Shown here: positions 5,521-37,882 of the stretch, piece after piece | How the letters are laid out: each line of letters begins with the position of its first letter | Position numbering within the stretch: position 1 is the first letter of the stretch | Source: Bacteroidales bacterium | GTDB lineage: Bacteria > Bacteroidota > Bacteroidia > Bacteroidales > F082 | Direction of reading: 5' to 3' | Length of the DNA: 64,000 nt | Assembly (NCBI GenBank): GCA_017549805.1 | Contig: JAFYNJ010000009.1 | Location: 124,001 to 188,000, forward strand | Notes under the pieces: generated by a model | The model's database searches: none | What the model was told of the DNA's origin: nothing | Seen by the model: only the letters and a program-made list of their open reading frames with translations | Made by a program: the position numbers and the translations under genes

Positions 5521-8500
5521 ATGAAAAAAGCATTACTATTGTTTTTTGTGATGGTAATAGGCGCAACTGCCTTTGCCCAGACAAAAATCCAGCTCCGTTC
5601 AGCCGACAAGGCTCAATGTGTAAAGAGCGACATGACAAGTCTCAAGGCCTCGTTCTCCTTCTCAGGCATTGAGGCTTTCGAAGTGCAAAACGATCGCGGT
5701 TCTTTCTCCTCGATCACGATGCCCAACACCGTCGCTGGCGGCAATGTGGGTGATCCTCAGATTCCCGTGATCAACGAGCTCATCGCCGTTCCTTTCGGGG
5801 CCACCCCCAACATCCGAGTGACCAACTATTCCACTACGGATTACAACCTTGAGGAATTTGGCATCCACAAACTGACTCCCCGTCAGCCCGATGTCATGAA
5901 AAATGAAAAACCTGAATTTGTCTATAACGAATCCGCTTACCAGAAGCGCGGCCTCAGCTCGGAGCCTATGGCTCGAGTCAGCGTGAATGGCACCATGCGC
6001 GGTGTTCAAGTAGGTCAGTTTAGCATTGAACCTGTCAGCTACGACCCCATGAACAACACGCTCCGTGTGTTTAACAATATCGAAGTGGAAGTCAGTTTTG
6101 ATGGCGCAGATGCCAAAGCCACCGAAGACATGCTGGTAAAGACTTACAGCCCTTACTTCGACATCCTTTACAAGCAGTTGTTTAACGAAAGGGCCGTGCG
6201 TGATGTTTACGAGGACCATCCTGACCTTTGGAAGAGTCCTGTAAAGATGTTGGTCATCGCCAACCGTATGTTCGAGGAATGCATCCAAGATTGGGTCGCT
6301 TGGAAGACCATGAAAGGTATTTATGTGGATGTGAACTATACCGACAATATCGGCACCACCTCTTCCGCTATTCAGAGTTTCATCCAAAACAAGTATGCAC
6401 AAGATGCACCAACCTTCCTCGTCATCATGGGTGACAAGGACCAAGTGGCGCCCAGCGTTGCTTCTGCCAGCAAGACTTCTTGTGTTGCCGACCTTTATTA
6501 TTCAAGTGTTGACGGTGACGAATTCGTCGATATGTACCACAGCCGTATCTCCGCTGAGACCACGCAACAAATGACGACCATCCTTAACAAGGCTCTGGAA
6601 TATGAGCAATATACCATGCCCGACCCGAGCTATTTGAACAATGTGCTCCTCATCGCTGGCGAAGACAGCGGTTGGGGGGTCACTGTGGGTCGTCCTACTA
6701 TTTGGTATGCCACCAACTATTACTACAACGCTGAACACGGCTTCGACAATGTGTATGAGTTCAGCCATGGCACCTACACCAATTGCTACGAACCGCTGAG
6801 CTCTGGTGTCGGCTTTGCCAACTATACTGCCCACGGCAGCAAGACCAGTTGGGCTGGTCCGGAATTCAGTGTCAGTGATGTCGCCAACCTGACCAACGCG
6901 CACAAGTACTTCCTCGCCATTGGCAACTGCTGTCAATCGGGCGACTGGGGCTACAGCACCACCTGCTTTGGTGAGTCGTTGGTTCGTGCTGAGAACAAGG
7001 GAGCTTACGCTTATATTGGCTCTTGCCCAAACACCACATGGAAAAACGACTATTACTTTGGAGTAGGTCCGACCAACCGCGCCGATGGCACCATGCCTTC
7101 ATACGAAGAGACTGGTCTTGGCATTTACGACGCCATCTGGATGGATGATGTTTATAACACCGTAAATTCCATCCTTTATGTCGGCCTTCTTGCTGGCAAC
7201 GCTGCCGGAGCCCTGGGATATGAGCTTCATAGCGAAACGCTTTACTACTGGCAAGCCTATCATGTCATCGGCGATGGTTCCATTATGCCTTACCGTGTGC
7301 AGCCTACGGCTAACAACGTCAGCCACATGGCCATCCTTCCTATCGGCATGTCCACCTACGAAGTAAGTGCCCTTCCAGGTTCCTACGTTGCTATCAGCAA
7401 AGACGGCGTGCTTCACGGCACTGCCCTTGTGGGTGAGACGGGAACTGTCCAAGTACCGATTACTCCTGTCACCTCTAGCGGTGATGTCACCATCTGCGTG
7501 ACCGCTCCCCAGCGTATTCCTTACATTCAAACCGTTCCAGCTGCTGCCCTTGAAGGCGCTTACATTGCAATGGACAGCTTTACGCCCACTGCCACCCATG
7601 TCGGCGACAACACCAACCTGAGCATCACCTTCAAGAATGTGGGTACAGATGCCACCTCAGGCAACACCAATATTACCTTAACCTCTGATGATGTTGATAT
7701 TCTTCAAGGCACAGGCAGCTTCGGCGCTTTGGCAGCTGAAGCCACCACCACCGTGAGCGGTTTCAGCTTCAAGATTGCTGAAGGTGTGGCCGACGGTACC
7801 AATGTCACGATACATTATACCGCTGTAAACGGTGAAGACACCTACGAAGGCAACATCGTTGTAAAGGCTAACGAAGCCAAGTTGGAGTATGCTGGAATGG
7901 CTTGGAACGGTGGATTCGCTCCAGGTGAGAACCTTACTTTGTCTGCCAAGTTCAAGAACACTGGTCATTACCAAGCTACCAATGCGGTGATTGAATTGAT
8001 GACTACTGCCAGCAACTATATCAACATCAGCACGCAGCAGGTGACAGCCGGCACCCTTGAGGTGGGTCAGGAGGTCACGTTCGACTTCAGCGTCACCATC
8101 GCTGCCGACTGCCCAGAGACCGCTGTGATTCCCGTCATCTTCACGATGACCGCCGACGGCGGCCTTACCGCCACAGGTACCGAGAACTTGAAGAATTCCT
8201 GCAATGTTATCTTTAACCTTATTGATAGCTATGGTGATGGATGGAATGGTGCCGCATTGGTTGTCAGTTTTGATGACGGTTCTGATTCACAGAACTTGAC
8301 CTTCTCGTCAGGCAATTCGGCTTCCTACACCTTGGAAATTGGCAATGGCGTCCATGTCACTTTGACTTGGAGTTCAGGTAGCTATGATGGCGAATGCTCC
8401 TTCAACGTGCAATACGAAGGCGACCTGATGATCTTCCAGCAAACCACCAGACCCAGTGCTGGTGTCCTTTATGAATTCGACTGCAACTGTGCAGCTGCCT

Positions 8501-11079
8501 CGCAAACCTACACGGTCACCGTTTCCTCCGAAAACACGGAGCATGGCACGGTTAGTGGCGGTGGCGAGTACAGCTTTGGCCAGTCATGCACCGTGACTGC
8601 CACTCCTGTCGAAGGCTACTATTTCGCAGGATGGCTCCAAGACGGCGAAGTGGTTACTGGAGCTGGTGCTACCTACACCTTCATTGTCAACGACAACATC
8701 AACCTTGTCGCCACCTTTGCAGAGGGACTCATGATCGGCGACGGAAGCTCTACTACGGACCAATATCTGCCGAGCTACAGCTACTACAACTACACCCTTT
8801 CCCAACAGATTTACACTGCTGAGGAACTCGGCTCCGCCGGCCTTATCAATAGCATCGCCTTCTTCAACGGAGGCGAGACCAAGACACGCAACTACGATGT
8901 TTACATGGTCGGCACGACCAAGAGCGCATTCACAGGTGCCACCGACTGGGTGACCGTCACTTCGGACAACCTGGTGTTCAGCGGCAGTGTTGAAATAACC
9001 GCCAACGACTGGACCACCATCGAGTTCAACAATCCTTTTGTTTACGACGGTGTCTCCAATGTTGTCCTTGTCGTTGACGACAACACAGGATCCTATAGTC
9101 AAGGTCTGCTCTGTCTCGTATTCGACGCATCGAGCCAGGCACTCCGCATCTACAGCGATGGAACTAACTACAACCCGCTTGCTCCCTCAAGCTACAGCGG
9201 TACGGTCATGAACGTGAAGAACCAGCTGATGGTCACGAAGACCGCGCTGGACGGCTGCGTGAACTCGGCACCTACAGGTTTGGAAGTGAGCGATATCACA
9301 AGCAATGCAGCCACCGTGACTTGGACAGGATTCAGCGAAAGCTACAATGTGATGCTGGGTATCTCCAACACCGCCACCTTGGTGGACGAAGACTTTGCCG
9401 ATGGCATTCCTACTGACTGGGTCAACAGCTCTGACTATCCGTGGAGCATCGTTGACGGCCACATGGAAAGTGGCAACGCAGGCGTGTCAAGCTCGACATC
9501 CAGCATTTCGTTCACCGCGACCTTACTTGCCGGCGGCACGATCGAGTTCGATGCCGAGTGCATGGGTGAGGGCACGTCAACCTATTGGGACCATGGCGAC
9601 TTCTACATCGACGAGGAGAGAATGATCTATGCTGGTGCCAACATTTCGGGTTGGAATCACTACAGCTTCGAAGTGGCAGCAGGCGAGCACACCTTCACCT
9701 GGTCGTACACCAAGGACGGTTCGGTGGATAATACGGGCGACTACTTCGCTGTGGACAACGTGGTGATGATGTCGGTCGATGTGAACTGGGACGAACCCGT
9801 GGCAGTTGAGGATGCCGAATACGACTTCACGGGCCTGAATCCCGAGACGGAATATTGCGTGAAGGTGCAGGGTATTTGTGATGACACCGAATCTGCATGG
9901 AGCAGTTTGGTGTACTTCACTACTGCTGAAGGACCTCAGGTTTCTACCTTCAATCTGCCCATCGAAGCCTACACCAACATCAGCGGCTACTACCTCATCG
10001 CTTCACCTGTCGGGGAAGTTGCAGTTGAGAACGTGACCAACTTGTTTGCCAACAACTTCGACCTCTACTACTTCGACCAATCCCAAAACAAAGAGTGGAT
10101 CAACTACAAACAAGGTGAAGGGAACAACACTGGTTTCACCACCCTCGAACTCGGAAAGGGCTACCTCTATGCCAACAGCCAAGATATCGAGCTCACCTTC
10201 TCGGGCACGCCTATCAGTAGCGAAGAGCCCTACGAGGTTGAATTGGACTATATCGCTAATGCAGAATTCGCTGGCGTGAACCTCATTGGCAACCCGTTCG
10301 CCGAAGAAGCTTACCTCGTCAGTGAAGATGGAACAGGTCAAGCATACTACAGACTGAATCCTTCCAACAACACGTTTGAAGCCATTGATAACGATGCCGC
10401 CATCGCAGCTATGGAAGGTATCCTTTACAGCACTGCAGATGGAACTTCCGTCTATTTCAGCACAACGGTTCCCACCACCGAGAAGGGCAACCTGAATATC
10501 ACGGTCAGCCAAGGCCGCAGTATGGTTGACAACGCCATCGTCCGCTTCGGCGAAGGCAACACCCTCAAGAAGTTCAGCTTCCGCGAGAACAGCACCAAGG
10601 TCTATATCCCGCAGAACGGCAATGACTATGCTGTGGTCAACGCTGGCGAGATGGGCGAAATGCCTGTCAACTTCAAGGCTGAGAAGAACGGCTCCTACAA
10701 TTTGAGCTTCACCACTAAGAACGTCGAGTTCACCTACCTGCACCTTATCGACAACCTGACGGGTGCCGACATCGACCTGTTGAAGCAGCCGAGCTACAGC
10801 TTCGAGGCTAAGACTTCTGATTACGCAAGCCGCTTCCGTCTGGTGTTTGCCACCGGCAATGCTTCGGACGACAACTTCGCATTCTATAGCAATGGCAATC
10901 TCATCATCAACAACACTGGAGATGCCACCTTGCAAGTCGTCGATGTCATTGGTCGTGTCATCAGCAGCCAAAATATCAACGGCAGCCAGAATGTCCGCAT
11001 CAATGCCAACAGCGGTGTCTATATGTTACGTTTGATCAACGGCAATAACACTAGAACACAAAAGATTGTGGTGAGATAA
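5521..11079 (+). CDS. Gingipain-family C25 cysteine peptidase with canonical T9SS type A tail
   Basis: 1852 residues. The order is: Sec signal peptide 1-20 (ends TAFAQ); C25 propeptide to about 235; C25 catalytic domain about 240-610 with His438 (NYTAHGS) and Cys470/Cys471 (AIGNCC), matching the His/Cys dyad of gingipains; an Ig-like domain; CARDB-like domains about 680-890; a DSYGDGWNGA domain near 900; one InlB-type repeat near 1000-1070; the YLP/QIYTA module about 1072-1245; an FN3 domain interrupted by a jelly-roll insertion (about 1285-1420); a domain with LIASPVGE and GVNLIGNPFAEE; and a type A T9SS sorting domain (last ~60 residues, ending QKIVVR). Secretion through T9SS and surface attachment are expected. 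Cleavage specificity (Arg or Lys) cannot be read. A terminator follows. Confidence 0.88.
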   Translation: MKKALLLFFVMVIGATAFAQTKIQLRSADKAQCVKSDMTSLKASFSFSGIEAFEVQNDRGSFSSITMPNTVAGGNVGDPQIPVINELIAVPFGATPNIRVTNYSTTDYNLEEFGIHKLTPRQPDVMKNEKPEFVYNESAYQKRGLSSEPMARVSVNGTMRGVQVGQFSIEPVSYDPMNNTLRVFNNIEVEVSFDGADAKATEDMLVKTYSPYFDILYKQLFNERAVRDVYEDHPDLWKSPVKMLVIANRMFEECIQDWVAWKTMKGIYVDVNYTDNIGTTSSAIQSFIQNKYAQDAPTFLVIMGDKDQVAPSVASASKTSCVADLYYSSVDGDEFVDMYHSRISAETTQQMTTILNKALEYEQYTMPDPSYLNNVLLIAGEDSGWGVTVGRPTIWYATNYYYNAEHGFDNVYEFSHGTYTNCYEPLSSGVGFANYTAHGSKTSWAGPEFSVSDVANLTNAHKYFLAIGNCCQSGDWGYSTTCFGESLVRAENKGAYAYIGSCPNTTWKNDYYFGVGPTNRADGTMPSYEETGLGIYDAIWMDDVYNTVNSILYVGLLAGNAAGALGYELHSETLYYWQAYHVIGDGSIMPYRVQPTANNVSHMAILPIGMSTYEVSALPGSYVAISKDGVLHGTALVGETGTVQVPITPVTSSGDVTICVTAPQRIPYIQTVPAAALEGAYIAMDSFTPTATHVGDNTNLSITFKNVGTDATSGNTNITLTSDDVDILQGTGSFGALAAEATTTVSGFSFKIAEGVADGTNVTIHYTAVNGEDTYEGNIVVKANEAKLEYAGMAWNGGFAPGENLTLSAKFKNTGHYQATNAVIELMTTASNYINISTQQVTAGTLEVGQEVTFDFSVTIAADCPETAVIPVIFTMTADGGLTATGTENLKNSCNVIFNLIDSYGDGWNGAALVVSFDDGSDSQNLTFSSGNSASYTLEIGNGVHVTLTWSSGSYDGECSFNVQYEGDLMIFQQTTRPSAGVLYEFDCNCAAASQTYTVTVSSENTEHGTVSGGGEYSFGQSCTVTATPVEGYYFAGWLQDGEVVTGAGATYTFIVNDNINLVATFAEGLMIGDGSSTTDQYLPSYSYYNYTLSQQIYTAEELGSAGLINSIAFFNGGETKTRNYDVYMVGTTKSAFTGATDWVTVTSDNLVFSGSVEITANDWTTIEFNNPFVYDGVSNVVLVVDDNTGSYSQGLLCLVFDASSQALRIYSDGTNYNPLAPSSYSGTVMNVKNQLMVTKTALDGCVNSAPTGLEVSDITSNAATVTWTGFSESYNVMLGISNTATLVDEDFADGIPTDWVNSSDYPWSIVDGHMESGNAGVSSSTSSISFTATLLAGGTIEFDAECMGEGTSTYWDHGDFYIDEERMIYAGANISGWNHYSFEVAAGEHTFTWSYTKDGSVDNTGDYFAVDNVVMMSVDVNWDEPVAVEDAEYDFTGLNPETEYCVKVQGICDDTESAWSSLVYFTTAEGPQVSTFNLPIEAYTNISGYYLIASPVGEVAVENVTNLFANNFDLYYFDQSQNKEWINYKQGEGNNTGFTTLELGKGYLYANSQDIELTFSGTPISSEEPYEVELDYIANAEFAGVNLIGNPFAEEAYLVSEDGTGQAYYRLNPSNNTFEAIDNDAAIAAMEGILYSTADGTSVYFSTTVPTTEKGNLNITVSQGRSMVDNAIVRFGEGNTLKKFSFRENSTKVYIPQNGNDYAVVNAGEMGEMPVNFKAEKNGSYNLSFTTKNVEFTYLHLIDNLTGADIDLLKQPSYSFEAKTSDYASRFRLVFATGNASDDNFAFYSNGNLIINNTGDATLQVVDVIGRVISSQNINGSQNVRINANSGVYMLRLINGNNTRTQKIVVR

Positions 11080-11100
11080 ACCTTCTCTTCCCTTTCTTTC

Positions 11101-11132
11101 AAAAAAAGGATGTCCGTTGGGCATCCTTTTTT
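11101..11132 (+). terminator. Intrinsic terminator after the first C25 gene
   Basis: AAAGGATG pairs with CATCCTTT around a short loop, followed by a T run. It ends the transcript of the 5521 gene before the promoter at 11154. Confidence 0.85.
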
Positions 11133-11153
11133 GTGTGATTTATCAAATTATCT

Positions 11154-11161
11154 TATCTTTG
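11154..11161 (+). promoter_or_regulatory. -7 promoter box of the second C25 peptidase
   Basis: TATCTTTG fits TAnnTTTG, 30 nt before the ATG at 11192. Confidence 0.65.
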
Positions 11162-11191
11162 CGCTCTTTTTATAAACTTAATTAATTTAAC

Positions 11192-14100
11192 ATGATACAT
11201 CGCAACAACGCCCTGCTATCCATCCTTATTGTCTTTGTTTCGACTTTTACTGCTTTCGGCCAACAATGGATTCCACTTTCGAGTGATAAGCCGGAGCCCA
11301 TCGAAACCGAACTCATCTCCTCTTCGGAAGATGCCATCACGGTTCATCTTCAAGTCGGAGGTTTTTACAGTATTACGGTAAACACGCCCCGTGGACAAGC
11401 AAACGTCATCAGCATTCCAAAGGCAGTCAACACTTTAAATGCCGGCGATCCCAATTTGCCAATGTATGCCATCCCTGCTATCATAGGAGACCAGGCAAAC
11501 ATGAGCATTAAGGTCGATCATGCTCAGTACACCGACTTCGAAAACATAGAGATTGCTCCTTCCAAAGGCGACTTTCCACGGAGCATCGATCCTTCTTCTG
11601 TACCATACACTTACGGTGAAGCCTATCGACACAACGCTTTTTACCCTGAAGTCACCGCTGGTCTTTATGAGCCTTACATACTACGCGATTTCCGCGGACA
11701 AAACATGGTGGTCTATCCCTTTGCCTACAATCCTATAACCAAAACGCTTCGCGTGTATCACGACTTGACCCTGACCATGTTTCGGGATGGGACGAGCAAG
11801 GTTAACTGCATCGAAACCCGCCGTGACAACACTGTCAGAATCGATCCCGATTTCAAGAACATCTATGAGAACCACTTCATCAACTACCATCAGGCATTGA
11901 ATCGATACACACCTGTGGAGGAAGAAGGCGACATGCTCATCATCTGCCATGATGCCTTCATGGATGCCATGACGGATTTCGTCCATTGGAAGCAAACCCG
12001 CGGCATCCAGACCACTATTGTGCCCATGAGCAGCGTCGGATCGGTTGCCAACGACATCCAAGGGTTCGTCATGGATCAATACAACGCCAATCCGAATTTG
12101 ACATACGTCCTTCTTGTGGGTGACGATGCTCAGATTCCCGGTACTTATTTCAGAGCTGAAACAACCTACAGTGACTGGAGCGGAAAAGGCGACAACATTT
12201 ATGGTCAAGTAGCCGGCGGCGACTTATATAACGACATCTTTGTCGGCCGTTTCTCCGCCAATACAGTCGCTCAAGTGGCCACCCAGGTGGAACGCACCAT
12301 CTATTACGAACGCGACATGGATTCCACGGCCACCTGGCTGGAAAACGGTGAAGGCATGGCAGCATACTCTGCCGAAAGCGGCCATTACGGGGAAACTGAT
12401 TATGGCCACATGGAAAACATCCGATTGGATCTGCTCAGCTATCATTATACCACTGTGTTTCAAGATTATGACGACGTTTCGGGTTACACTTGTTCCGTAT
12501 CCTCTATCAACCAGCATCTCAACAACGGTGTTGGCATCTTGAATTACATCAACCATGGCAATGAGCAGATGTGGTCTGTGGCTTCCTATTGCAATGAGAA
12601 CATCAATACTTTGGTCAACGACAACAAACTGCCTTTCATCTGGTCAACTGCCTGCAAGGTCGGCAAATACGACAACACCTATACCGACCATGGTTCAGGC
12701 TTTACCGTGGGTCAAGAAGACGACTGTATGGCCGAAGCCTGGATGCATGCCACCAACCCTGCCACCAACGCCCCAACAGGTGCTATTGGAGGCATGTTCT
12801 CCTATATTTCACAACCCTGGCAGCCGCCCATGTACGGACAAGACGAGATGGTTGACATCCTCATTGAGAGTTATGAAAGCAATATCAAGCACACCTTAGG
12901 CGGCACTTCCATCAATGGTATCATGGCCATCATCGACCAATACGGCGCATCCGATATCAACGCCTATGCCACCCATCAAGGTTGGGTGCTTTACGGCGAC
13001 CCGTCCTTGATGCTTCACACCAAAGCACCCGAAGTCATGGAAGTCACACACAGTGGCAACATTGCACCCACGGAAACGGCTTACATGGTAAATGTCACCA
13101 ATGGAGAAGGTGCTGTGGTCACGATTACCCGCAACCATGAGATTCTTGGCACGGCCAAGGTGGAAAACGGTGTTGCCAACATCACTATTTCAGCACCGGG
13201 TGCCGACTATCCCGAGCTCACCCTTTGTGTGTTTGGTTTCAACAAAGTCACCTATCTGGGCAGTATCACCGTCAACACCGGTTCGCAATACACGATCGCG
13301 GCCATAGCAAATCCAACTAACGGTGGTGTCATCACAGGTGCAGGCGCCTATTACGAAAACCAGACCTGCACTTTGACCGCTACTCCCAATGTCGGATATG
13401 TGTTTGCCAACTGGGAACAGGAAGGCGACGTGATCAGCAACGACCCAACCTACAGTTTCACCGTCAACGGCGATGCAGAATTCACGGCCAATTTCATAGC
13501 GTTGACCAACCACAGCATCAACTGCACGGCCAGCAGCGAGGGCAATATCCTTGTTGACAAAGCCACGGCTTTCCTAGGTGAGTCTGTTACCATCGGCACC
13601 CAACCGGCAGATGGTTACAGCTTCTCTTCTTGGACTGTCACCGATGCCAACAACAATCCCATCACGGTCACCGACAACCAATTTGTCATGCCCGACAGCG
13701 ACGTCACTGTTGCCGCCACGTATGTTGTTGGTTATACCATCAGTCTTGCCGAAGTGATGTACGGTAGCATCAGCGCCAACAAAACTTCCGCCGCACAAGG
13801 CGTTACTGTCACCTTGACGGCCACGCCATCCAACGGCTATCAGCTTAGTGCATGGAAAGTATATCGGACTGACGATGTGAACACTGTTGTCACCGTCAAC
13901 GGCAACAGCTTCACCATGCCCGACCACAACGTCACAGTCAGTGCCGTGTTCAGCTTGCAGCCTGGCGGCGAGATCAGCATCGGAAGCGGGACAACAACCA
14001 GCTATTATCTGCCCACTTTCGAAAGTTATCGGTATTCACTTTCTGAGCAAATCTACACTGCAAACGAAGTGGGTGGTGCGGGAACCATCACCACCATTGC

Positions 14101-15382: not shown

Positions 15383-15408
15383 TCCCTTAACTCCAGACTG
15401 CATCAATG

Positions 15409-16334: not shown

Positions 16335-16338
16335 GCTA

Positions 16339-16404
16339 TTCCGACCTTTTGTTTGCAAAAATAGCATAATTTCTTTAAAACAAGCCTAATTTTCCGACCT
16401 TTTG
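16339..16404. repeat. 13-bp direct repeat in the AraC divergent promoter region
   Basis: TTCCGACCTTTTG occurs exactly at 16339-16351 and 16392-16404, start-to-start 53 bp (about five helical turns). A looser copy ending in the same TTTTG lies at 16413-16424. The first copy sits between the AraC -7 box and its ATG; the second and third sit upstream of the 16481 gene. This arrangement is what AraC-type regulators use; binding is inferred. Confidence 0.55.
16356..16363 (-). promoter_or_regulatory. -7 promoter box of the AraC-family gene
   Basis: On the minus strand TATTTTTG fits TAnnTTTG, 21 nt before the ATG at 16334. Confidence 0.6.
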
Positions 16405-28446: not shown

Positions 28447-30413
28447 AAAACATCAAATTATTCGTTCTGGTTGGCTTGTTAATTGGTTTACCCTTTTTGA
28501 CCTTCGGCCAGGACTCCCAGAAGCCTGATTGGAAGAAACTACACTATCTCTCTGAAGAGGAGATGCTCTCGAAAGAGCGCAGCTCCATCTATCAAGAAAC
28601 TGACCCACCAGCGGGCGACTATGTCCGTTTCCCCGCTGAGTTTGAGCCCATGCAGGCGGTCACTATCCGTTACCCGCTTGGCATCCCCACCAGCCTTGTC
28701 AAACAACTTTCGGAACGCACAAAGGTATATTGCATTGTCACATCAAGCCAACAGAATAGCGCCAGAAGCACTTTCCAAAACGCTGGATGTAACATGAACA
28801 ACATCACCTATTATAATATGAGCACCGAGTCGTATTGGGTGCGCGACTATGGTCCATGGTACATCTTCAACGACCTGGAGCCTGCCATTGTTGACAATGC
28901 CTACAATAGGCCTCGCAACAACGACAACATGGTGCCTGTTTACATGGGTCAGCAATTGGGGCTTACCGTTTATGGCATGAACCTCACCCATACGGGCGGT
29001 AACATGATGGAAGACGGCCGTGGCGTTGGTGTCTCCGATGAGCTCATCTTGAACGAGAACAGCAACAACGAGAACAACGTTCGCACCAAGATGCGCAATT
29101 ATCTCGGCATCGACCCGTACCACATCACCATCGACCCGCAAGGCGACTACATCGCCCATGTGGACTGCTGGGGCAAGTTCTTGGCACCCGACAAGATTCT
29201 CATTGCGCAACTGCCAACTTCGAACAGCCATTACGCCGATTATGAGGAAGTGGCTGAGTTCTTTGCCAACACCAATTGCTGCTGGGGCTATCCCTACAAG
29301 GTGTATCGCGTGTATGAACCTGGTGGAAACACTGTTGCTCCATACACCAATAGTTTGATTGTTAACAAGACTGTCTTTGTCCCCTTAGGTAGCAACAACA
29401 CTTATAATAATGATGCTTTGGCGGTCTATCAGCAGGCTTTGCCTGGTTATGAGATCATCGGCGTCACTGGGGCAAGCAGCACTCCTTGGGAGAATACCGA
29501 TGCCCTTCACTGCCGCACCCGTGGCGTGATGGACTTCAACATGCTCTTTGTGGATCACCGCGATGTGGTCTTCGGCGAGCAACCCATGCAGGACTCCATC
29601 GCCATCACCAGCAAGTTCATTGCCTATAGCGGTCAAGCGTTGAAACAGGATTCGCTCTTGGTGTATTACAGCATCGACGGCGGCGCCTACCAGACGGCCA
29701 AGATGACTTCCACGGGCAACCTGTATGAGTATGTCGGCTACATCAAAGGCTACAATTATGGTTCCTCCATTGACTATTATGTCTTCGGAGCCGACGAATC
29801 GGGACACCGTTATTCGCAACCGGTTTTCGGAGCTGTAGAACCTCACCATTTCGACATTGAAGAAGGCAGCGGCACAACGACCACTGAACAAACCGTATCG
29901 CTTTCATCGGGCTGGAATTGGTGGACACCAGATGTCGATCTGGATGGTGCTACGCTGCTCTCCCTGATTGAAAACGGTCTGGGTGCAAACGGTGTCAAGA
30001 TCATGTCGCAGGACGGCAAATTTGCAACCCGCTCCACCTATGGATGGTCAGGTTCCCTCACCTCACTCGAAGTGGGCAAGATGTATATGATTCAAGTCAG
30101 TTCACCTTGCACCTTCTCCATTGAGGGCAATTTTGTCGATCTAACCAACCATAGCATCACCCTTTCATACGGCAACAACTGGATTGGCTATTTCGGTACA
30201 CAGCCCATGTCGGTGAATGCCGCCTTGGCCAACCTTCCGGCCACCGTGGGTGACAAGATCACCGGACAAGACGGTTCCATTGCCACCTATTCTAGGTATG
30301 GATGGAGCGGTCCTCTTCAAACGCTAGTTCCAGGTGGGGCTTATCTCTACAACTCGAAAGCCTCTTCCGATGTGACATTCACGTTTTCGACAAACAACAA
30401 ATACAACAAATAA
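28443..30413 (+). CDS. Secreted peptidylarginine deiminase, Porphyromonas PPAD-type, with WNWW-type C-terminal module
   Basis: 656 residues. Signal peptide 1-22; deiminase domain about 50-390; an Ig-like domain about 390-480; C-terminal module from about 485. The catalytic residues are all present: Asp135 (WVRDYGPW), His239 and Asp241 (AHVDCWGKF) and Cys357 (ALHCRTRG), against Asp130, His236, Asp238 and Cys351 in PPAD. Arg156 and Arg158 (YNRPR) match the pair that in PPAD holds the peptide's C-terminal carboxylate, so the enzyme should convert C-terminal arginine of peptides to citrulline, releasing ammonia. The start ATG overlaps the carboxypeptidase stop (ATGA), implying translational coupling. 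Agmatine deiminase is the main alternative; the signal peptide and Ig domain argue against it. Confidence 0.87.
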   Translation: MKNIKLFVLVGLLIGLPFLTFGQDSQKPDWKKLHYLSEEEMLSKERSSIYQETDPPAGDYVRFPAEFEPMQAVTIRYPLGIPTSLVKQLSERTKVYCIVTSSQQNSARSTFQNAGCNMNNITYYNMSTESYWVRDYGPWYIFNDLEPAIVDNAYNRPRNNDNMVPVYMGQQLGLTVYGMNLTHTGGNMMEDGRGVGVSDELILNENSNNENNVRTKMRNYLGIDPYHITIDPQGDYIAHVDCWGKFLAPDKILIAQLPTSNSHYADYEEVAEFFANTNCCWGYPYKVYRVYEPGGNTVAPYTNSLIVNKTVFVPLGSNNTYNNDALAVYQQALPGYEIIGVTGASSTPWENTDALHCRTRGVMDFNMLFVDHRDVVFGEQPMQDSIAITSKFIAYSGQALKQDSLLVYYSIDGGAYQTAKMTSTGNLYEYVGYIKGYNYGSSIDYYVFGADESGHRYSQPVFGAVEPHHFDIEEGSGTTTTEQTVSLSSGWNWWTPDVDLDGATLLSLIENGLGANGVKIMSQDGKFATRSTYGWSGSLTSLEVGKMYMIQVSSPCTFSIEGNFVDLTNHSITLSYGNNWIGYFGTQPMSVNAALANLPATVGDKITGQDGSIATYSRYGWSGPLQTLVPGGAYLYNSKASSDVTFTFSTNNKYNK

Positions 30414-30441
30414 ACACATTATTAATTAACCACTTAACTCA

Positions 30442-33400
30442 ATGAAAAAAAATCTATTGACCTTTGTGCTTTTGGTCCTCAGCACCGTGGCCTTTGCCCA
30501 GTTGCAGGCCACACCGCAGTGGAACAGCATCCTCAGCGACAAAGCTGAGACCTTCCGCACACAGCTCATCTCTTCTTCGGAGAGCAGCATCCAGGTGAAC
30601 GTTCAAGTTCCCGGCTTCTATGCCACCAGCGTTACCACTCCGAGAGGTGAAGCCAAGATCATCTCCATGCCTAAGGCAGTGAGTACTGCCCAAGCGGGCG
30701 AACCCAATGTCCCTATGACCGGTATCCCGGTAATGATCGGTGACAAGGCTCGTATGAACGTACGCGTGATCGATGCCCAATACATGGACTTCGAAGGCAT
30801 TGAAGTGGCTCCTTCCAAGGGCGACTTCCCTCGCTCCATCGATCCCGCCACTGTGCCTTACACCTACGGCGAATGCTACAGCCAGGACGCTTTCTTCCCG
30901 GCTAGCAATGTGAGTCTTTATGATCCCTACATCATCCGCGACTTCCGTGGTCAGAACATGGTGGTGTATCCCTTTGCCTACAACCCTGTCACCAAGACCC
31001 TCCGCGTGTATTACAACATGACCGTGGAGATGTACAAGGTGGATGACAAAGGCAGCAATGTCATCGAAAGCCGTCGCAGCAATGTGGTGAAGATGGACCA
31101 AGATTTCAAGAGTGTCTATCAGCGTCACTTCATCAACTATGAGGCTGGCATGTCCAAATATACAGCCTTGGATGAGGAAGGCGACTTGCTCATCATCTGC
31201 TACGACAACTTCATCAGCTACATGACCGACTTTGTCAACTGGAAAAAGACCCGTGGTATCAACACTACTATCGTTGGCACCACTACAGCTGGTTCCACAT
31301 ATTCGGCCATTAAGAACTATATTCAAAGCCAATATAATGCCAATAACAACATTACCCATGTGCTGCTTGTCGGCGATGTAGCCCAAATCCCAGGTTATTC
31401 ATACTCGGGCGGTGGATCTTCCTACAGCGGCTTGGGTGACAACGCTTACGGACAAATCGTAGGTAGTGACTACTACAACGATGTCTTCATCGGTCGTTTC
31501 TCGGCTCAGACCGCTGCTCAGGTGACCACTCAAGTCAACCGTGTCATTACCTACGAACGTGACCTCACCACTTCTGCTACTTGGCTGCAAAAAGCCGACG
31601 GTATTGCAAGAAACGAAGGCGGCTCTGGCCATAACGGTGAGGACGACTACGAGCACATGGACGTGATTCGTACCGACCTGCTCAATTACGGTTACAACAC
31701 CGTGTATCAGGACTACGAGAACTTAAGCGGTTATACTGGCACCGCCTCTTCCATCAGCAGTCACATCAACAGTGGTGTGGGTATCGTCAATTACTGCAAC
31801 CACGGCAACAACCAATTATGGGGCGTTGCAAGCTACAGCAACACTCAAGTCAACCAACTCACCAATAGCAACATGTTGCCTTTCATTTGGTCGGTGGCTT
31901 GCCTCGTTGGTAAATACGACAACACTTCGACATCCTATGGCAGTAACTACACCATTGGTCAAAACAACGACTGCTTCGCCGAGGCTTGGATGCACGCCAC
32001 TTACAGCAGTTCTGACCTAACGCCAACGGGTGCCATTGGTGCTTTGATGTCGTACATCAGTCAGCCTTGGATCCCGCCCATGTGGGCACAAGACGAGTGT
32101 GTTGATATCTTGGCTGGACTGTCTAGTTCAGGTGGGACTAAACACACTTGGGGTGGTCTTTCCATCAATGGACTATTTGGCATTTTCGATAACTATGGTA
32201 CAGACCAATCCGCTGTCGGCACTTACCAAGCATGGATTCTCTACGGTGACCCAAGTATGATGGTTCGTACCAAGACCCCACAGGCCATGACGGTGAATCA
32301 CAATGGCACCATCGCTCTTGGTTCTTCATCCTACGCAGTCAGCGTGAGTAATGGCAACGGTTCCGTAGCTACCATCACCGATGCCGACCACAACATATTG
32401 GGTAAGGCCACGGTGAGCAACGGCTCTGCCACCATCAACATCTCGGGCAACCTTACCCCCAACCAGGAACTGACCCTCTGCGTGTTTGGTTTTGATAAGG
32501 TGACTTATATGGGCACCATCACCGTTACTGGCGGCACGCAATACAACATCACCACTACCCAACCCCAACACGGCACCATCAGCGCTCCATCACAGGCCTA
32601 CGCCGGTGCCACAGTGACATTGACCGCCACACCTGAAACAGGTTACTGCCTCTCCAGCTGGACGGTCAAAGCCGGCAGCACGAACATCACGGTGACCAAC
32701 AACCAGTTCACCATGCCTGAAAGCAACGTGACGGTGACCGCCACCTTTGTCCAAGGCATGGCTGTCACACTGGCTCCAGTAACCAACGGCACCATCAGCG
32801 CCGATATGGCATACGCACTGCAAGGCAACACCGTTAACCTGACCGCCACACCTGCTTCGGGCTATGAGTTCAACGGCTGGGTGGTCTATAAGACTGGCGA
32901 TGCTACCACCTCGGTCACGGTGAGCAACAACAGCTTCACCATGCCTAACTATCCTGTCACCGTAAGCGCCATCTTCTTGGCTCCTGCTGGTGGCGATGTG
33001 ACCATTGGCGGTGACAACTCTGGCACCACCAATGGCGGTTATCTGCCAACCCATGTGTGGTATAAATATTCACTGACCCAACAAATCTATACCGCCGATG
33101 AGTTGGGCACCGCTGGCACCATTACTGCAATCAGTTTCTATTATGCTGGCTCAACCAGTTCGGGCGCCAGAACAATTCAGGTTTATTTGGCACATACCAC
33201 CAACGCCACCATCTCCTCATGGATGACTCAATCCAGCAGCAACTTAGTCTATTCGGGATCGCATGAATTCACCCAAGGTTGGAACACCATCACCTTGAGC
33301 ACACCATTCGCATACAACGGTACGAATAATGTAATCCTTACCTTTGATGACAACACAGGCAGCTATAGTGTAAGCTCCACGCAATCGTTCTACACCTACT

Positions 33401-35835
33401 CCACAGGATCCAATAGAGCTATCCGTTATTACAGCGACAGCAGCAACTTGTCTGCTACCAGCAGCAACTCCACTTCTGGAACCACGTTGCAATACAACAA
33501 CTATATCAAGATCACCAAGGAAGTCCCGAGCACTGAAGGCTACCTATCAGTGTCTCCCACCAACCTGACTGGCTTCCAAGCCACCTCTGGCGCCACGGCT
33601 TCCAACCCGCAGACTGTCGCCGTCATCGGCAGCAACCTCCAGGCCAACCTGACTGTTACCGCCCCCACGGGCTTTGAAGTCTGCGCCACCAGCAACGGCA
33701 CCTACAACAGCACGTTGACCCTGACTCCTTCCAATGGAAGCATCCAAGCCAATGTGTTTGTCCGCCTCAGCTCTAGCGTGAGCCCCGGCAACTACAATGG
33801 CAACATGACCTTGGCATCCGGCACGACCAGTGCCACAGTCAGCCTCAGCGGCACCGTTGACCAAGGAACTGGCACCTCTTACGAAATCACTGCCACTGCC
33901 AATCCAACCGCAGGCGGCACCATCACCGGTGCAGGCACCTACTATGAAAACGGCACTTGCACACTGGTCGCCACCGCCAACACTGGCTATACTTTCACCA
34001 ACTGGACGAAAAACGGCAGCGTAGTCTCTTCCAGCGCCAGCTACAGCTTCACTGTTAACCAGGCAAACGCAGGCGCTTACGTCGCCAACTTCACGCTCAA
34101 CAGCTACGAAGTCACCGCCACGGCTAACCCGAGCGCAGGTGGCACCATCTCCGGCACAGGCAGCTACGACCATGGCACCACCGCTAGCCTGACCGCTACA
34201 GCCAACGAAGGTTATACCTTCACTAACTGGACGAAGAACGGCGTGTCGGTGAGCACCAATGCCACCTATAGCTTTACCGTGACTCAAGCTACTGCTTTGG
34301 TTGCCAACTTCTCCATCAACAGCTATGACGTGACGGCCACGGCCAATCCTACCGACGGCGGCACCGTTACCGTCGGCGCTCGCAACAGAGACGACCTCGT
34401 TTATGACTTTGAAAACGGCTGGCAAGGCTGGACGACCTTCCAAGGTAGCACCACTTCCCCACACAGCTGGATGCATAACACGGAATATACTGCATACGAT
34501 TCCAACGGTAACCAAATTGTCCCGGAATGCCACAATTCTACTTCTGGCATGATGCTTTCCGAGTCTTACATTTCCGCCAGCACATCAGGAGGCTCGGATG
34601 CCACAGCAGTCACTCCTGACAACTACCTCGTTTCTCCGCAGTTCCGTTTAGGTGGAAGCTTCACCTTCTATGCCGCATCTCGAATGAGTAATTATCCTGC
34701 TGAGAAGTTCTCCGTATTGGTATCAGAGTCGGGCAACACCAGTGCCAGCGACTTCACTCATACTGAGTTGACAGTGACTTTGTCAGATAATAGCTGGAAC
34801 GAATACACCATCGACCTGAGCGATTACAGCGGCATGGGTTATGTGGCCATTCGTCACTGGGACTGCAACGACCAGCACTTGCTCTATATTGATGACGTCA
34901 CTATCGTGGAAGGTTTGAATCAGTCCACTGGCAGCGGCAACTTCAACTACGGCGAAACCTGCGTTGTGACCGCCACTCCGAATGCGGACTACAATTTCGT
35001 GAACTGGACTGAGAATGGCACACAAGTCAGCGCTGAGGCCACTTACAGCTTCACCGTCACCGGCGATCGCGACCTTGTGGCCAACTTCTCCCAAGTGTTG
35101 CCGACGTACTACACCATCAGCGTAACGGCTAACCCGAGCAACGGTGGTACCGTCACTGGCGGCGACAGCTATGTTGCAGGCAGCACCGCAACGCTGACCG
35201 CTACGGCCAACGAAGGCTACACCTTCACACAATGGCAGGACGGCAACACGGATAACCCGCGCACTATCACTGTAACAGGTGATGCCAGCTATACGGCCAA
35301 TTTCGCGGAAGTCATCACGACCGTCACGCAGACCTCAACATTCAGCACTGGTTGGAACTGGTGGACATTGACTATTGACACTGAAGATGCTTTGGCTGAA
35401 CTCGAAGCAGCTTTGGGCAGCAACGGTGTCCAGATCAAAGCTCAAGATGGTAGCATAGTCACTCATTCCTCCTACGGATGGTCAGGATCGCTTGGCTCTC
35501 TTGAAGTAGGAAAGATGTACTTGATCAAGGTCTCTTCAAATTGTTCAGTCTCCCTTGAAGGTACTGCCATTGACGTGACCGACCAGAGTATCACCCTTTC
35601 ACATGGTAACAACTGGATCGGCTATTATGGCACACAGACCATGTCGGTGAACGCCGCCTTGGCCAATCTCCAAGCCACCGTAGGTGACAAGATCACCGGA
35701 CAAGACGGCAAAGTGGCCACCTATTCCAGCTATGGATGGAGTGGCACACTCCAAAATCTTGTTCCTGGCGAGGGTTATCTCTACAACTCGAAGGCCACCT
35801 CTGACGTTACTTTCAAATTTGCATCGGCAAAATGA
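30442..35835 (+). CDS. C25 cysteine peptidase with six InlB repeats, nested adhesin domain and WNWW-type C-terminal module
   Basis: 1797 residues. Signal peptide 1-20 (ends TVAFAQ); C25 propeptide and catalytic domain of the 11192 subtype, with His454 (YCNHGNNQLW) and Cys487 (WSVACLVG); two degenerate and four standard InlB-type repeats; one YLP/QIYTA module (about 853-1030); a beta domain shared with 11192; a gingipain cleaved-adhesin-like domain (about 1316-1494, starting YDFENGWQGW and ending YIDDVTIVEG) placed inside one InlB repeat; and the C-terminal module from about 1625. The 28-nt gap after the deiminase gene has no promoter, so 25669, 28443 and 30442 probably form one operon. Confidence 0.87.
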   Translation: MKKNLLTFVLLVLSTVAFAQLQATPQWNSILSDKAETFRTQLISSSESSIQVNVQVPGFYATSVTTPRGEAKIISMPKAVSTAQAGEPNVPMTGIPVMIGDKARMNVRVIDAQYMDFEGIEVAPSKGDFPRSIDPATVPYTYGECYSQDAFFPASNVSLYDPYIIRDFRGQNMVVYPFAYNPVTKTLRVYYNMTVEMYKVDDKGSNVIESRRSNVVKMDQDFKSVYQRHFINYEAGMSKYTALDEEGDLLIICYDNFISYMTDFVNWKKTRGINTTIVGTTTAGSTYSAIKNYIQSQYNANNNITHVLLVGDVAQIPGYSYSGGGSSYSGLGDNAYGQIVGSDYYNDVFIGRFSAQTAAQVTTQVNRVITYERDLTTSATWLQKADGIARNEGGSGHNGEDDYEHMDVIRTDLLNYGYNTVYQDYENLSGYTGTASSISSHINSGVGIVNYCNHGNNQLWGVASYSNTQVNQLTNSNMLPFIWSVACLVGKYDNTSTSYGSNYTIGQNNDCFAEAWMHATYSSSDLTPTGAIGALMSYISQPWIPPMWAQDECVDILAGLSSSGGTKHTWGGLSINGLFGIFDNYGTDQSAVGTYQAWILYGDPSMMVRTKTPQAMTVNHNGTIALGSSSYAVSVSNGNGSVATITDADHNILGKATVSNGSATINISGNLTPNQELTLCVFGFDKVTYMGTITVTGGTQYNITTTQPQHGTISAPSQAYAGATVTLTATPETGYCLSSWTVKAGSTNITVTNNQFTMPESNVTVTATFVQGMAVTLAPVTNGTISADMAYALQGNTVNLTATPASGYEFNGWVVYKTGDATTSVTVSNNSFTMPNYPVTVSAIFLAPAGGDVTIGGDNSGTTNGGYLPTHVWYKYSLTQQIYTADELGTAGTITAISFYYAGSTSSGARTIQVYLAHTTNATISSWMTQSSSNLVYSGSHEFTQGWNTITLSTPFAYNGTNNVILTFDDNTGSYSVSSTQSFYTYSTGSNRAIRYYSDSSNLSATSSNSTSGTTLQYNNYIKITKEVPSTEGYLSVSPTNLTGFQATSGATASNPQTVAVIGSNLQANLTVTAPTGFEVCATSNGTYNSTLTLTPSNGSIQANVFVRLSSSVSPGNYNGNMTLASGTTSATVSLSGTVDQGTGTSYEITATANPTAGGTITGAGTYYENGTCTLVATANTGYTFTNWTKNGSVVSSSASYSFTVNQANAGAYVANFTLNSYEVTATANPSAGGTISGTGSYDHGTTASLTATANEGYTFTNWTKNGVSVSTNATYSFTVTQATALVANFSINSYDVTATANPTDGGTVTVGARNRDDLVYDFENGWQGWTTFQGSTTSPHSWMHNTEYTAYDSNGNQIVPECHNSTSGMMLSESYISASTSGGSDATAVTPDNYLVSPQFRLGGSFTFYAASRMSNYPAEKFSVLVSESGNTSASDFTHTELTVTLSDNSWNEYTIDLSDYSGMGYVAIRHWDCNDQHLLYIDDVTIVEGLNQSTGSGNFNYGETCVVTATPNADYNFVNWTENGTQVSAEATYSFTVTGDRDLVANFSQVLPTYYTISVTANPSNGGTVTGGDSYVAGSTATLTATANEGYTFTQWQDGNTDNPRTITVTGDASYTANFAEVITTVTQTSTFSTGWNWWTLTIDTEDALAELEAALGSNGVQIKAQDGSIVTHSSYGWSGSLGSLEVGKMYLIKVSSNCSVSLEGTAIDVTDQSITLSHGNNWIGYYGTQTMSVNAALANLQATVGDKITGQDGKVATYSSYGWSGTLQNLVPGEGYLYNSKATSDVTFKFASAK

Positions 35836-35888
35836 GAATCTGCCCCAAAAAAAGTGTTCTATCTTAAAAATAATTGGATTATTTATTG

Positions 35889-35896
35889 TAATTTTG
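35889..35896 (+). promoter_or_regulatory. -7 promoter box of the 35939 gene
   Basis: TAATTTTG fits TAnnTTTG, 43 nt before the ATG at 35939. Confidence 0.55.
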
Positions 35897-35938
35897 CAGC
35901 CTTAAATTTGAGTAAAAAATAAATCTATATCAAAAAAA

Positions 35939-37882
35939 ATGAAAAGAAAACTGATTATGTTTGTTGTGGCCTTGCTTCTTGGAGGTGAGGTGATGTATGC
36001 GCAGGATTTCCATTTTGCGCCCGACTTTGACTATCATGATTACACCATGCTTTACAGTGTCATTGGTCAGGTTTACTTCAATGGTGAAAAACAAAACAGC
36101 GACCAAGTTGAAGTGGCCTGTTTCGTTGGCGACGAATGCAGGGGAAGAGTCATGCTTATGGAGCCTTTCCCAAATGTACCTGACTTAGGTTATTTCGCTT
36201 ACCTTCCTTGTTATTATAACAATGTTGGTGAGACCTACACTTTCAAAGCATACGACCATGCCACTAGCAAAGAGTATGTAATTTGCGAAGAAACGGTTGT
36301 TGGCGATGAAGACGGCTATGGCGATGTCGATGATCCCTACGATCTTCATTTCACCAGAGAGGAAGAACCTACCATCGGTCCCGAGTATCCTTGGATACCC
36401 TCCACTGCCTATAGTGGCAATGGCATGGTAGTCACAGCCCAAATCCAAATCAACGGCCAGCTTGTTGACAGAGCCACCTACGAAGTGGGTGCCTTCTGCG
36501 GCGAAGAATGCCGTGGCACCTCACGTGAAAATGAAGAATACCCGAATCTCGTTGATTTCACAGAGGATGAACTGGGTTATTTCGCTTTCATGAACATCAT
36601 GGGCAATGATGGCGATGTCATCAACTTCTATCTGTATGATTTGGAAAGTGAAGAAATCGTCCCAGCTGTGTGTTCCACTACAATCACATTGGAAAACGAC
36701 GGCGAAGTCGGCGTAGATATCTATGGCGGCGACATCTTCGTCCTCAATTTCGAGACAGAACACTATACGAAGGATATCATTGGCTATGGAAACGGCAATG
36801 GTCACTATTATCTCATTGCTTCCCCCATCGGAGAAGTGAGTCCCGAGAATGTAGATAACATGCTGGCTAACAGCTATGACCTCTACTACTTCGACCAATC
36901 CCAAGACAAGGAATGGATCAACTACAATGGAGACCAGGAATTGAACCATGCAGGCGGTTTCAATCTGGAACCTGGCAAAGGTTACCTCTATGCCAACAGT
37001 GAGAATATCACGCTGACCTTCTACGGCACTCATAACGAAGGAGATGGTGAAGTGACCCTTACCAAGGATGGCAGTGCAGAATTCGCAGGTTGGAACCTCA
37101 TTGGCAACCCCTTTGCCGAAGACGCCTATATTGGTGGAAGAGCATTCTATAGAATGAACGAAGGCGGCACCGAAATCGAAGCTGCTACTGATGATGTCAT
37201 TGCTGCCATGGAAGGCATCTTCGTCATCGCTGAAGACGACGAAGAAACCTTGACTTTCAGCACAGAAGAACCTCAAAAGAGTGCTACCCTTGTGATGAAC
37301 ATCAGCCGCAACAACCGCGGTGGTGCCATCGACCGCGCCATCGTCCGCTTTGGCACGGGAAGCACCCTGCCCAAGTTCATGCTCAACAATGACAACACCA
37401 AGCTCTACATTCCTCAGGACAGCAAAGACTACGCAGTGGTCAATGCCAACGAGGACGGCGAGATGCCCGTCAACTTCAAGGCTTCCGAGAACGGCACCTA
37501 CCTCTTCTCCGTCAATGCTCAAGAGGTTGACTTCAGCTACCTCCACCTCATCGACAACCTGACCGGTGCTGATGTTGACTTGCTCGCCACCCCGAGCTAC
37601 TCCTTCGATGCCCGCGTTTCCGACTATGCCAGCCGTTTCAAACTGGTGTTCACCACCGGCAATGCCAATGGCAACAACTTTGCCTTCTACAACAACGGCA
37701 ACATCATCATCAACAACAATGGTGATGCCACCCTGCAAGTGGTTGACGTTACGGGTCGCATCGTGAAGAGCGAAAACATCAACGGCAGCGCCAACGTCAG
37801 TGTGAACGCCGCCCCTGGTGTTTACATGATCAACCTCATCAACGGCAACGATGTCAAGACACAGAAGATCGTCGTTGAATAA
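35939..37882 (+). CDS. Secreted protein with two tandem N-terminal repeats and a canonical T9SS type A tail
   Basis: 647 residues. Signal peptide 1-21 (ends VMYAQ). Residues about 22-135 and 140-265 are two copies of one domain, each with a V(A/G)xFxGxECRG core (VACFVGDECRG, VGAFCGEECRG) followed by LGYFA and a YxFKAYD/FYLYD strand. I do not recognise a named family. Residues about 285-450 match the LIASP/LIGNPFAEDAY domain that precedes the tail in the 5521 protein, and the last ~70 residues are a type A sorting domain ending QKIVVE. It closes the exported-protein block and ends at a strong terminator. Function unknown; no catalytic motif is visible. Confidence 0.75.
   Translation: MKRKLIMFVVALLLGGEVMYAQDFHFAPDFDYHDYTMLYSVIGQVYFNGEKQNSDQVEVACFVGDECRGRVMLMEPFPNVPDLGYFAYLPCYYNNVGETYTFKAYDHATSKEYVICEETVVGDEDGYGDVDDPYDLHFTREEEPTIGPEYPWIPSTAYSGNGMVVTAQIQINGQLVDRATYEVGAFCGEECRGTSRENEEYPNLVDFTEDELGYFAFMNIMGNDGDVINFYLYDLESEEIVPAVCSTTITLENDGEVGVDIYGGDIFVLNFETEHYTKDIIGYGNGNGHYYLIASPIGEVSPENVDNMLANSYDLYYFDQSQDKEWINYNGDQELNHAGGFNLEPGKGYLYANSENITLTFYGTHNEGDGEVTLTKDGSAEFAGWNLIGNPFAEDAYIGGRAFYRMNEGGTEIEAATDDVIAAMEGIFVIAEDDEETLTFSTEEPQKSATLVMNISRNNRGGAIDRAIVRFGTGSTLPKFMLNNDNTKLYIPQDSKDYAVVNANEDGEMPVNFKASENGTYLFSVNAQEVDFSYLHLIDNLTGADVDLLATPSYSFDARVSDYASRFKLVFTTGNANGNNFAFYNNGNIIINNNGDATLQVVDVTGRIVKSENINGSANVSVNAAPGVYMINLINGNDVKTQKIVVE

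What the first reader, a model, noticed from the sequence alone, without database searches (positions are those of the whole stretch)
5521..37882. 32-kb exported proteolysis and citrullination locus: four gingipain-family peptidases, M14 carboxypeptidase and PPAD-type deiminase together
The sequence shows four C25 peptidases with intact His/Cys dyads (438/470-471, 455/488, 445/477-478, 454/487), an M14 carboxypeptidase with all ligands, and a deiminase with all PPAD catalytic residues, interleaved with one adhesin, one AraC regulator and one T9SS cargo. In P. gingivalis, gingipains, CPG70 and PPAD act on the same peptide ends, but to my knowledge they are not one gene block. I infer a dedicated extracellular peptide-processing system: endoproteolysis, trimming, then C-terminal arginine deimination.
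Basis: partly seen in the sequence, partly recalled or inferred. Interest (0 to 1): 0.85.

Follow-up and report, generated by a model that had tools for sequence, protein, structure and literature searches.

The report
Gingipain and citrullinase gene island
An uncultured, probably gut-dwelling Bacteroidales bacterium carries, side by side in one 32-kb stretch, relatives of the protein-cutting and citrulline-making enzymes known from the gum pathogen Porphyromonas gingivalis, which suggests that this enzyme kit may also serve ordinary gut life and not only disease.

Summary
Observation confirmed. Window 5521-37882 encodes two Lys-gingipain-type and two Arg-gingipain-type C25 peptidases (dyads and S1-pocket signatures intact), an M14B-like carboxypeptidase overlapping by 4 nt a homologue of P. 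gingivalis peptidylarginine deiminase (PPAD; E 1e-104, all nine checked residues kept, including those that confine PPAD to C-terminal arginine), an AraC regulator, a Cthe_2159-domain protein and a T9SS cargo. Named relatives of the host are uncultured Bacteroidales-type MAGs, many from ruminants and horses. The block is an accessory island in the transglutaminase/IF-2 convergent gap, which is 29-75 bp in six relatives. PPAD lies beside C25 genes in at least six genomes of the genus; five of these PPADs form one clade, separate from a stand-alone PPAD that is widespread in the family and had no detected gingipain-like C25 nearby in 21 loci examined. Export, activity and co-expression are untested. 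New arrangement of known families; the main interest is PPAD plus gingipains as a possible commensal system.

The parts
5521..11079 (+). C25 peptidase, Lys-gingipain (Kgp) type; prodomain, catalytic and Ig-like domains, InlB-B and fn3-like repeats, type A T9SS tail
   Evidence: Pfam; best PDB match Kgp 4rbm E 3e-139; H438/C471, D382 (= Kgp D388), D510 (= Kgp D516); TIGR04183 E 1.7e-08
11192..15382 (+). C25 peptidase, Arg-gingipain (Rgp) type, ends in XCTD
   Evidence: best PDB match RgpB 1cvr E 1.4e-78; D403 (= D163), M547 (= M288), H455/C488, prodomain R130
15456..16367 (-). AraC-family regulator, only minus-strand gene of the block
   Evidence: HTH_18 E 1.6e-18
16481..20689 (+). Cthe_2159-domain protein with InlB-B repeats and XCTD (ORF opens at TTG 16463; first ATG, before a likely signal peptide, at 16481)
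   Evidence: PF14262 E 1.5e-49; start region read
20916..25544 (+). C25 peptidase, Lys-gingipain type, ends in XCTD
   Evidence: Kgp 4rbm E 8e-108; D389, D520, H445/C478
25669..28446 (+). M14B-like metallocarboxypeptidase with CarboxypepD_reg, PKD, CUB and InlB-B domains, ends in XCTD
   Evidence: PF00246 E 2.9e-51; best PDB matches CPD 1h8l E 8e-46, CPM, CPN
28443..30413 (+). PPAD-type peptidylarginine deiminase, overlaps the M14 gene by 4 nt (ATGA), ends in XCTD
   Evidence: PPAD 4yt9 E 1.4e-104 over residues 50-480; W132, D135, R156, R158, Y236, H239, D241, N303, C357; overlap
30442..35835 (+). C25 peptidase, Arg-gingipain type, with InlB-B repeats, a Cleaved_Adhesin domain and XCTD
   Evidence: RgpB 1cvr E 4.5e-83; Kgp adhesin-domain chain 4itc E 8e-10; D402, M547, H454/C487, prodomain R131
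35939..37882 (+). T9SS cargo of unknown function with type A tail; relatives close the block in G523 and G462
   Evidence: TIGR04183 E 1e-08
2856..5378 (+). Flank: transglutaminase-core protein, left border of the island
   Evidence: PF01841; matched in 96 of 99 genus genomes
37960..40833 (-). Flank: translation initiation factor IF-2, right border of the island
   Evidence: TIGR00487 E 8e-237

Best explanation
The block is an accessory surface-peptidase island of a gut Bacteroidales. Kgp-type and Rgp-type C25 peptidases, made as zymogens with prodomains, cut proteins after Lys and Arg at the cell surface or outside. The fresh C-terminal Lys/Arg ends then meet two competing enzymes: an M14B-like carboxypeptidase that clips off the basic residue (free amino acid for uptake), and a PPAD-type deiminase that turns a C-terminal Arg into citrulline and ammonia, leaving an end that a basic-specific carboxypeptidase should no longer remove. 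The likely service is protein and amino-acid nutrition, with PPAD capping peptide ends and possibly the island's own Arg-terminated processing products. Shown here: gene content, intact residues, specificity signatures, recurrence in relatives, presence at a gap that is nearly empty in other species, a T9SS translocon gene in the genome. Inferred: export route of the XCTD proteins, enzyme activities, competition, nutritional purpose.
For: C25 typing: two Kgp-type and two Rgp-type, every dyad intact. PPAD homology over the deiminase plus Ig-like chain, with the residues that confine it to C-terminal Arg (role of R152 and Y233 from passages of PMC9559808). M14 nearest to CPD/CPM/CPN. M14-PPAD 4-nt overlap and 28 nt to the next Rgp-type gene. 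PPAD beside C25 in G523, G451, G452, G488 and G450; five of the six PPADs form one 100/100 clade. Same-strand order Kgp-type, M14, PPAD, Rgp-type, 35939-type cargo repeated in G523. SprA/Sov gene, 107 type A tail matches and three S46 dipeptidyl-peptidases in the genome, which fits surface proteolysis.
Against: PPAD is often not clustered: no C25 was detected in 0 of 21 ... i.e. none of 21 stand-alone loci has a C25 found by BLAST with the window domains (that search misses divergent C25s, as it did for two in G000:C5). G462 has the island without PPAD. Rgp-type C25s were found in only 3 of 6 PPAD clusters (G488, G451, G450 show Kgp-type only, in stretches that end at region or contig borders). 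A PPAD 78% identical over its C-terminal part lies, split over two frames, without C25 in 40 kb in G441. Six of eight proteins lack a recognised T9SS tail. No activity or expression data.
Confidence: 0.62

Rival explanations
1. A peptidase hot spot without functional coupling: the transglutaminase/IF-2 gap is a permissive site where exported-protein genes with shared modules (InlB-B, XCTD) accumulate by duplication and recombination; PPAD was caught up by chance.
For: The gap holds different things: 29-75 bp in six genomes, 396 bp in one, 1.5-2.9 kb in four, 13.4 kb without a match to the window's genes in G451, 25.5 kb of M14 and C25 in G462. Repeats of about 60-84% DNA identity link island genes. 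Gene orders differ between genomes. PPAD has a stand-alone life in the family.
Against: In G523, G488 and G451 the PPAD-C25 blocks lie on contigs other than the one with this gap, so linkage follows the genes and not only the site. Five clustered PPADs form one clade that stays beside C25s although gene order changes. M14-PPAD overlap.
Confidence: 0.25
2. Protection or maturation role: PPAD caps C-terminal Arg of the bacterium's own surface proteins and of gingipain processing products, shielding them from trimming, and the M14 tunes the same ends; nutrition is secondary.
For: In P. gingivalis an Arg-gingipain itself is found citrullinated (PMC6147916, passages), and a protective role against gingipains is cited in PMC10329627 (passages). 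The prodomain Arg equivalent to RgpB R126 is kept in both Rgp-type proteins, so Arg-terminated products are expected.
Against: Stand-alone PPADs give no sign of a fixed neighbour, though C25s are present in 173 of 173 family genomes. Not testable here.
Confidence: 0.2
3. The deiminase is not a peptide enzyme but an agmatine deiminase-like enzyme that happens to be exported.
For: NCBIfam agmatine deiminase models match weakly, far below cut-off (53 bits against 381.8).
Against: PPAD matches at 354 bits over 430 residues including the Ig-like part; signal-peptide-like start; R152, R154 and Y233 equivalents kept.
Confidence: 0.03

Closest known systems
P. gingivalis PPAD (PDB 4yt9)
   Same: Deiminase plus Ig-like chain align end to end; all nine residues checked are kept
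   Different: The clustered copy ends in XCTD instead of a type A T9SS tail and overlaps a carboxypeptidase gene; in the tree the P. gingivalis sequence falls outside the clade of this family's PPADs
Lys-gingipain Kgp (4rbm) and Arg-gingipain RgpB (1cvr)
   Same: Prodomain, catalytic domain and Ig-like domain; dyads and S1 residues (D388/D516 type, D163/M288 type)
   Different: Two of each type in one block; C-terminal parts are InlB-B repeats and XCTD, with one Cleaved_Adhesin domain at 30442-35835
Metallocarboxypeptidases D, M and N (M14B); P. gingivalis CPG70 (recalled, not compared)
   Same: M14 catalytic domain followed by a carboxypeptidase regulatory-like domain
   Different: Extra PKD, CUB, InlB-B and XCTD domains
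Gingipain R / PPAD interplay in P. gingivalis (PMC9559808, passages)
   Same: Arg-specific cleavage exposes C-terminal Arg, PPAD citrullinates it
   Different: There the genes are scattered (recalled); here they are one block, with Lys-type C25s and M14, in another Bacteroidales lineage

Membership tests
PPAD (Porphyromonas-type peptidylarginine deiminase) | Catalytic Asp130, His236, Asp238, Cys351 and Asn297 | tested here: met
   Present in the window protein and in 135 of 135 aligned rows (roles partly recalled)
PPAD (Porphyromonas-type peptidylarginine deiminase) | Arg152, Arg154, Tyr233 that restrict it to C-terminal Arg | tested here: met
   Present in the window protein; 127 of 135 rows keep both Arg; Tyr233 is absent from all 26 distant rows L017-L042
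PPAD (Porphyromonas-type peptidylarginine deiminase) | Deiminase plus Ig-like domain architecture | tested here: met
   One alignment over chain residues 2-427 of 4yt9; by sequence only
PPAD (Porphyromonas-type peptidylarginine deiminase) | T9SS type A C-terminal tail | tested here: not met
   Clustered copy ends in XCTD; the stand-alone copy at G000:C32 has one (E 1.7e-13). Membership is claimed for the enzyme domains, not for the tail
PPAD (Porphyromonas-type peptidylarginine deiminase) | Citrullination of C-terminal Arg peptides | not testable with these tools
   needs enzyme assay
Gingipains (C25) | His/Cys dyad and Arg- or Lys-type S1 pocket residues | tested here: met
   two Rgp-type, two Kgp-type; Kgp D388/D516 roles recalled, RgpB D163/M288 from PMC9559808 passages
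Gingipains (C25) | Propeptide_C25 and Peptidase_C25_C domains | tested here: met
   all four proteins
Gingipains (C25) | T9SS type A tail | tested here: inconclusive
   present in 5521-11079 only; the other three end in XCTD, whose role is unknown
M14B basic carboxypeptidase | M14 catalytic residues and closest similarity to CPD/CPM/CPN | tested here: met
M14B basic carboxypeptidase | Removal of C-terminal Lys/Arg | not testable with these tools
   needs assay
T9SS substrate set | T9SS translocon in the genome | tested here: met
   SprA/Sov TIGR04189 match, 2504 bits; other T9SS components not tested

The most novel reading that the evidence does not exclude
PPAD and gingipains form an old, ordinary gut-commensal peptide-processing system in which Arg-specific cleavage is followed by a choice between trimming and citrulline capping; P. 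gingivalis carries a scattered, later version, so that citrullination is not primarily a virulence trait, and ruminant and hindgut Bacteroidales are a large unrecognised source of C-terminally citrullinated peptides.
Probability: 0.3. Interest if true: 0.82.

Novelty: new variant of a known kind. Interest (0 to 1): 0.62.

Why it matters
Papers seen in part call PPAD unique to pathogenic Porphyromonas (PMC6147916, abstract passage; a section title of PMC9559808) and its function in P. gingivalis physiology not clear (PMC6367333, start of abstract in the listing), although PMC8826395 (passages) already notes that pPAD genes are more widespread than thought. A family of uncultured Bacteroidales in which most genomes have PPAD, and blocks where PPAD sits with Arg- and Lys-gingipain-type peptidases and a carboxypeptidase, give a setting outside Porphyromonas in which the purpose of bacterial citrullination can be tested, and point to a possible gut source of citrullinated peptides, a topic in rheumatoid arthritis research.

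Tried and rejected
Agmatine deiminase reading of the deiminase: rejected. Foreign DNA by composition: G+C of the 2-kb bins over the block is 0.467-0.536, inside the range of the rest of the window. No tRNA at the borders and no inverted repeat of 60 bases or more in 1-44000 (shorter ones not sought). Bacteroidetes promoter pattern (recalled) TTTG-N19-21-TANNTTTG: one hit, upstream of 11192, chance expectation 0.51, so no use. XCTD as a disguised type A tail: hhalign finds only 25 shared columns with the pre-tail domain of 35939-37882; in two relatives XCTD is followed by a canonical-looking tail, so it is a module and not proven to be a sorting signal. Structure prediction of XCTD failed and was then switched off. 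MAG names gave no paper. The first tree lacked four of the clustered PPADs because identical copies had been dropped; rebuilt. One search read minus-strand loci on the wrong strand, so only its plus-strand rows are usable; redone. The BLAST typing uses the four window C25 domains and missed two divergent C25s in G000:C5 that Pfam finds, so 'no C25' there means no gingipain-like C25 detected.
Full report
WHAT IS THERE. The block runs from 5521 to 37882 between a transglutaminase-core gene (2856-5378) and IF-2 on the other strand (37960-40833). It holds nine genes, eight on the plus strand, with -4 to 226 bases between neighbours; the M14 stop and the PPAD start overlap as ATGA, and the next C25 begins 28 bases after PPAD. 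Eight proteins open with a signal-peptide-like start (read by eye; no predictor was run).

THE C25 PEPTIDASES. All four have the C25 prodomain, catalytic and Ig-like domains. By sequence, 5521 and 20916 are nearest Kgp (E 3e-139 and 8e-108), while 11192 and 30442 are nearest RgpB (E 1e-78 and 5e-83). I aligned 33 C25 rows: Kgp, RgpB, the four window domains and 27 from G523, G451, G452, G488, G450, G462 and other loci of the own genome. The His/Cys dyad is kept in 33 of 33. Without the two references, 16 of 31 have the Kgp pattern (Asp at 388 and 516), 9 of 31 have the Rgp pattern (Asp163; Met288 in 8 of these 9, Gln in one), and 6 of 31 fit neither (about 20% identity to both); PorU-like proteins, themselves C25, may be among the last (recalled). 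The roles of RgpB Asp163 and Met288 are from passages of PMC9559808, Asp163 also from PMC4357240; those of Kgp D388 and D516 are recalled. The own genome has 15 C25, nine of gingipain type: four Kgp-type, five Rgp-type.

THE DEIMINASE. It matches PPAD 4yt9 at E 1e-104 over residues 50-480. In 135 aligned rows (window, P. gingivalis and homologues, after dropping identical sequences and those covering under 280 positions) D130, H236, D238, N297 and C351 are kept in 135 of 135, R152 and R154 together in 127, and all nine residues in 103. Five rows, second genes in tandem with a stand-alone PPAD where the neighbour was seen, have R152E and W127F.

THE CARBOXYPEPTIDASE. Its best solved relatives are CPD, CPM and CPN, the basic-specific M14B group (recalled). 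Such an enzyme would remove the arginine that PPAD needs, so I read the two as competing fates of one peptide end and not as a fixed sequence.

HOST AND SPREAD. The window's own sample is not named. In the family, 153 of 173 genomes match the full-length query at E 1e-20 or better. Nine of these are weaker than 1e-90 (counted by eye) and could be XCTD-only matches, since XCTD alone reached 1e-72 in the own genome; that leaves 144 of 173. In an even sample of the phylum 27 of 395 genomes match, the own genome among them, and none of the five other same-order genomes listed. In the tree of 57 rows the family's PPADs form a clade (97/85) and P. gingivalis PPAD joins it from outside (92/82; long branch, so its place is unsure).

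TWO LIVES OF PPAD. The own genome has a clustered PPAD and a stand-alone one at C32. One search covers 25 further PPAD loci: four relatives of the window copy, 4 of 4 with C25 next to PPAD and 3 of 4 with M14; and 21 stand-alone loci (own C32, ten of the genus, ten of other genera), 0 of 21 with a C25 detected by BLAST with the window domains and 1 of 21 with a weak M14 (24%) about 12.5 kb off. Flanks were about 20 kb a side, shorter on one side for a few (for instance G508, G461, G437). Of eight more PPAD-bearing stretches of 11-40 kb one, G450, has PPAD beside C25s; G441 has a PPAD split over two frames with no C25 in 40 kb; three have tandem PPADs. So PPAD beside C25 stands in at least six genomes including the window; the other PPADs of the genus were not examined. 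Five of these six PPADs form a 100/100 clade, G450 lies outside it.

AN ISLAND. I fetched the stretch after the transglutaminase gene in 20 chosen genomes of the 96 with that gene. IF-2 follows in 13: after 29-75 bp in six, 396 bp in one, 1.5-2.9 kb in four, 13.4 kb without a match to the window's genes in G451, and 25.5 kb in G462, whose block is M14, four C25 and a 35939-type cargo without PPAD. One contig ends just after an M14 gene (G509); in six IF-2 is not within 20 kb. M14 also follows this transglutaminase gene in G452, G463, G477, G501, G519 and, twice, G450; C25s follow on the same contig in G452, G501 and G519, while the contigs of G463, G477 and G450 break soon after. In the window the gap is 32,581 bp. 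The window block therefore looks like an accessory island at a permissive convergent gap; yet the PPAD-C25 blocks of G523 and G488 lie on other contigs, their own gaps being 1.6 kb and 75 bp.

C-TERMINAL DOMAINS. XCTD occurs at 19 places in the own genome, some at contig ends or on duplicated contigs, against 107 type A tail matches. The eight XCTD loci checked end within a residue of the domain. Of 13 XCTD matches in named relatives two are followed by 201 residues with a canonical-looking tail, and 29 of 395 phylum genomes, the own one included, have it. Whether a terminal XCTD directs secretion is open.

LITERATURE. The listings of searches on PPAD homologues, rumen PAD, gingipains in rumen and PPAD phylogeny (at most 20 papers shown each) name no paper on this gene block or on PPAD in this lineage; the library is open-access papers only. 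PMC8826395 (passages) says pPAD genes are more widespread than thought, so spread as such is not new. PMC5114307 (passages) lists a 'Peptidylarginine deiminase and related enzymes' category in a rumen metagenome; that category also covers agmatine deiminases (recalled).

CAUTIONS. The window genome is a MAG with 7.58% estimated contamination; the block lies on one 221-kb contig. Specificities and export are inferred from sequence.

Noticed in passing
window 27922-28443, 29886-30410, 14870-15379, 25047-25541, 35317-35832, 20180-20686: Shared ~165-aa C-terminal two-repeat domain (XCTD) without a Pfam or NCBIfam match at E 0.01, terminal in this genome, followed by a canonical-looking tail in two relatives; candidate new sorting or anchoring module.
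   Followed up: partly
L265 (G457:C18), L266 (G500:C27), L269 (G495:C33), L165, L176: Second PPADs with W127F and R152E, a 100/100 clade nested in the stand-alone PPADs; loss of the C-terminal-carboxylate Arg suggests changed specificity.
   Followed up: partly
G000:C25 9-19.5 kb (L106) and G000:C11 35-47 kb (L108, L109): Two more loci with mixed Kgp-type and Rgp-type C25s in the own genome; an S46 dipeptidyl-peptidase lies beside the C11 pair.
   Followed up: no
L259 (G441:C3): PPAD homologue split over two overlapping frames, 78% and 64% identical to the window copy, with no C25 in 40 kb; possible decaying copy or assembly error.
   Followed up: no
G000 contigs C8/C30 and C19/C33: Same scores at matching places on contig pairs: duplicated stretches, perhaps linked with the reported contamination of this MAG.
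   Followed up: no
L017-L020 (family f23): PPAD homologues of 39-45% identity in a distant family, with Ala at the Tyr233 position.
   Followed up: partly
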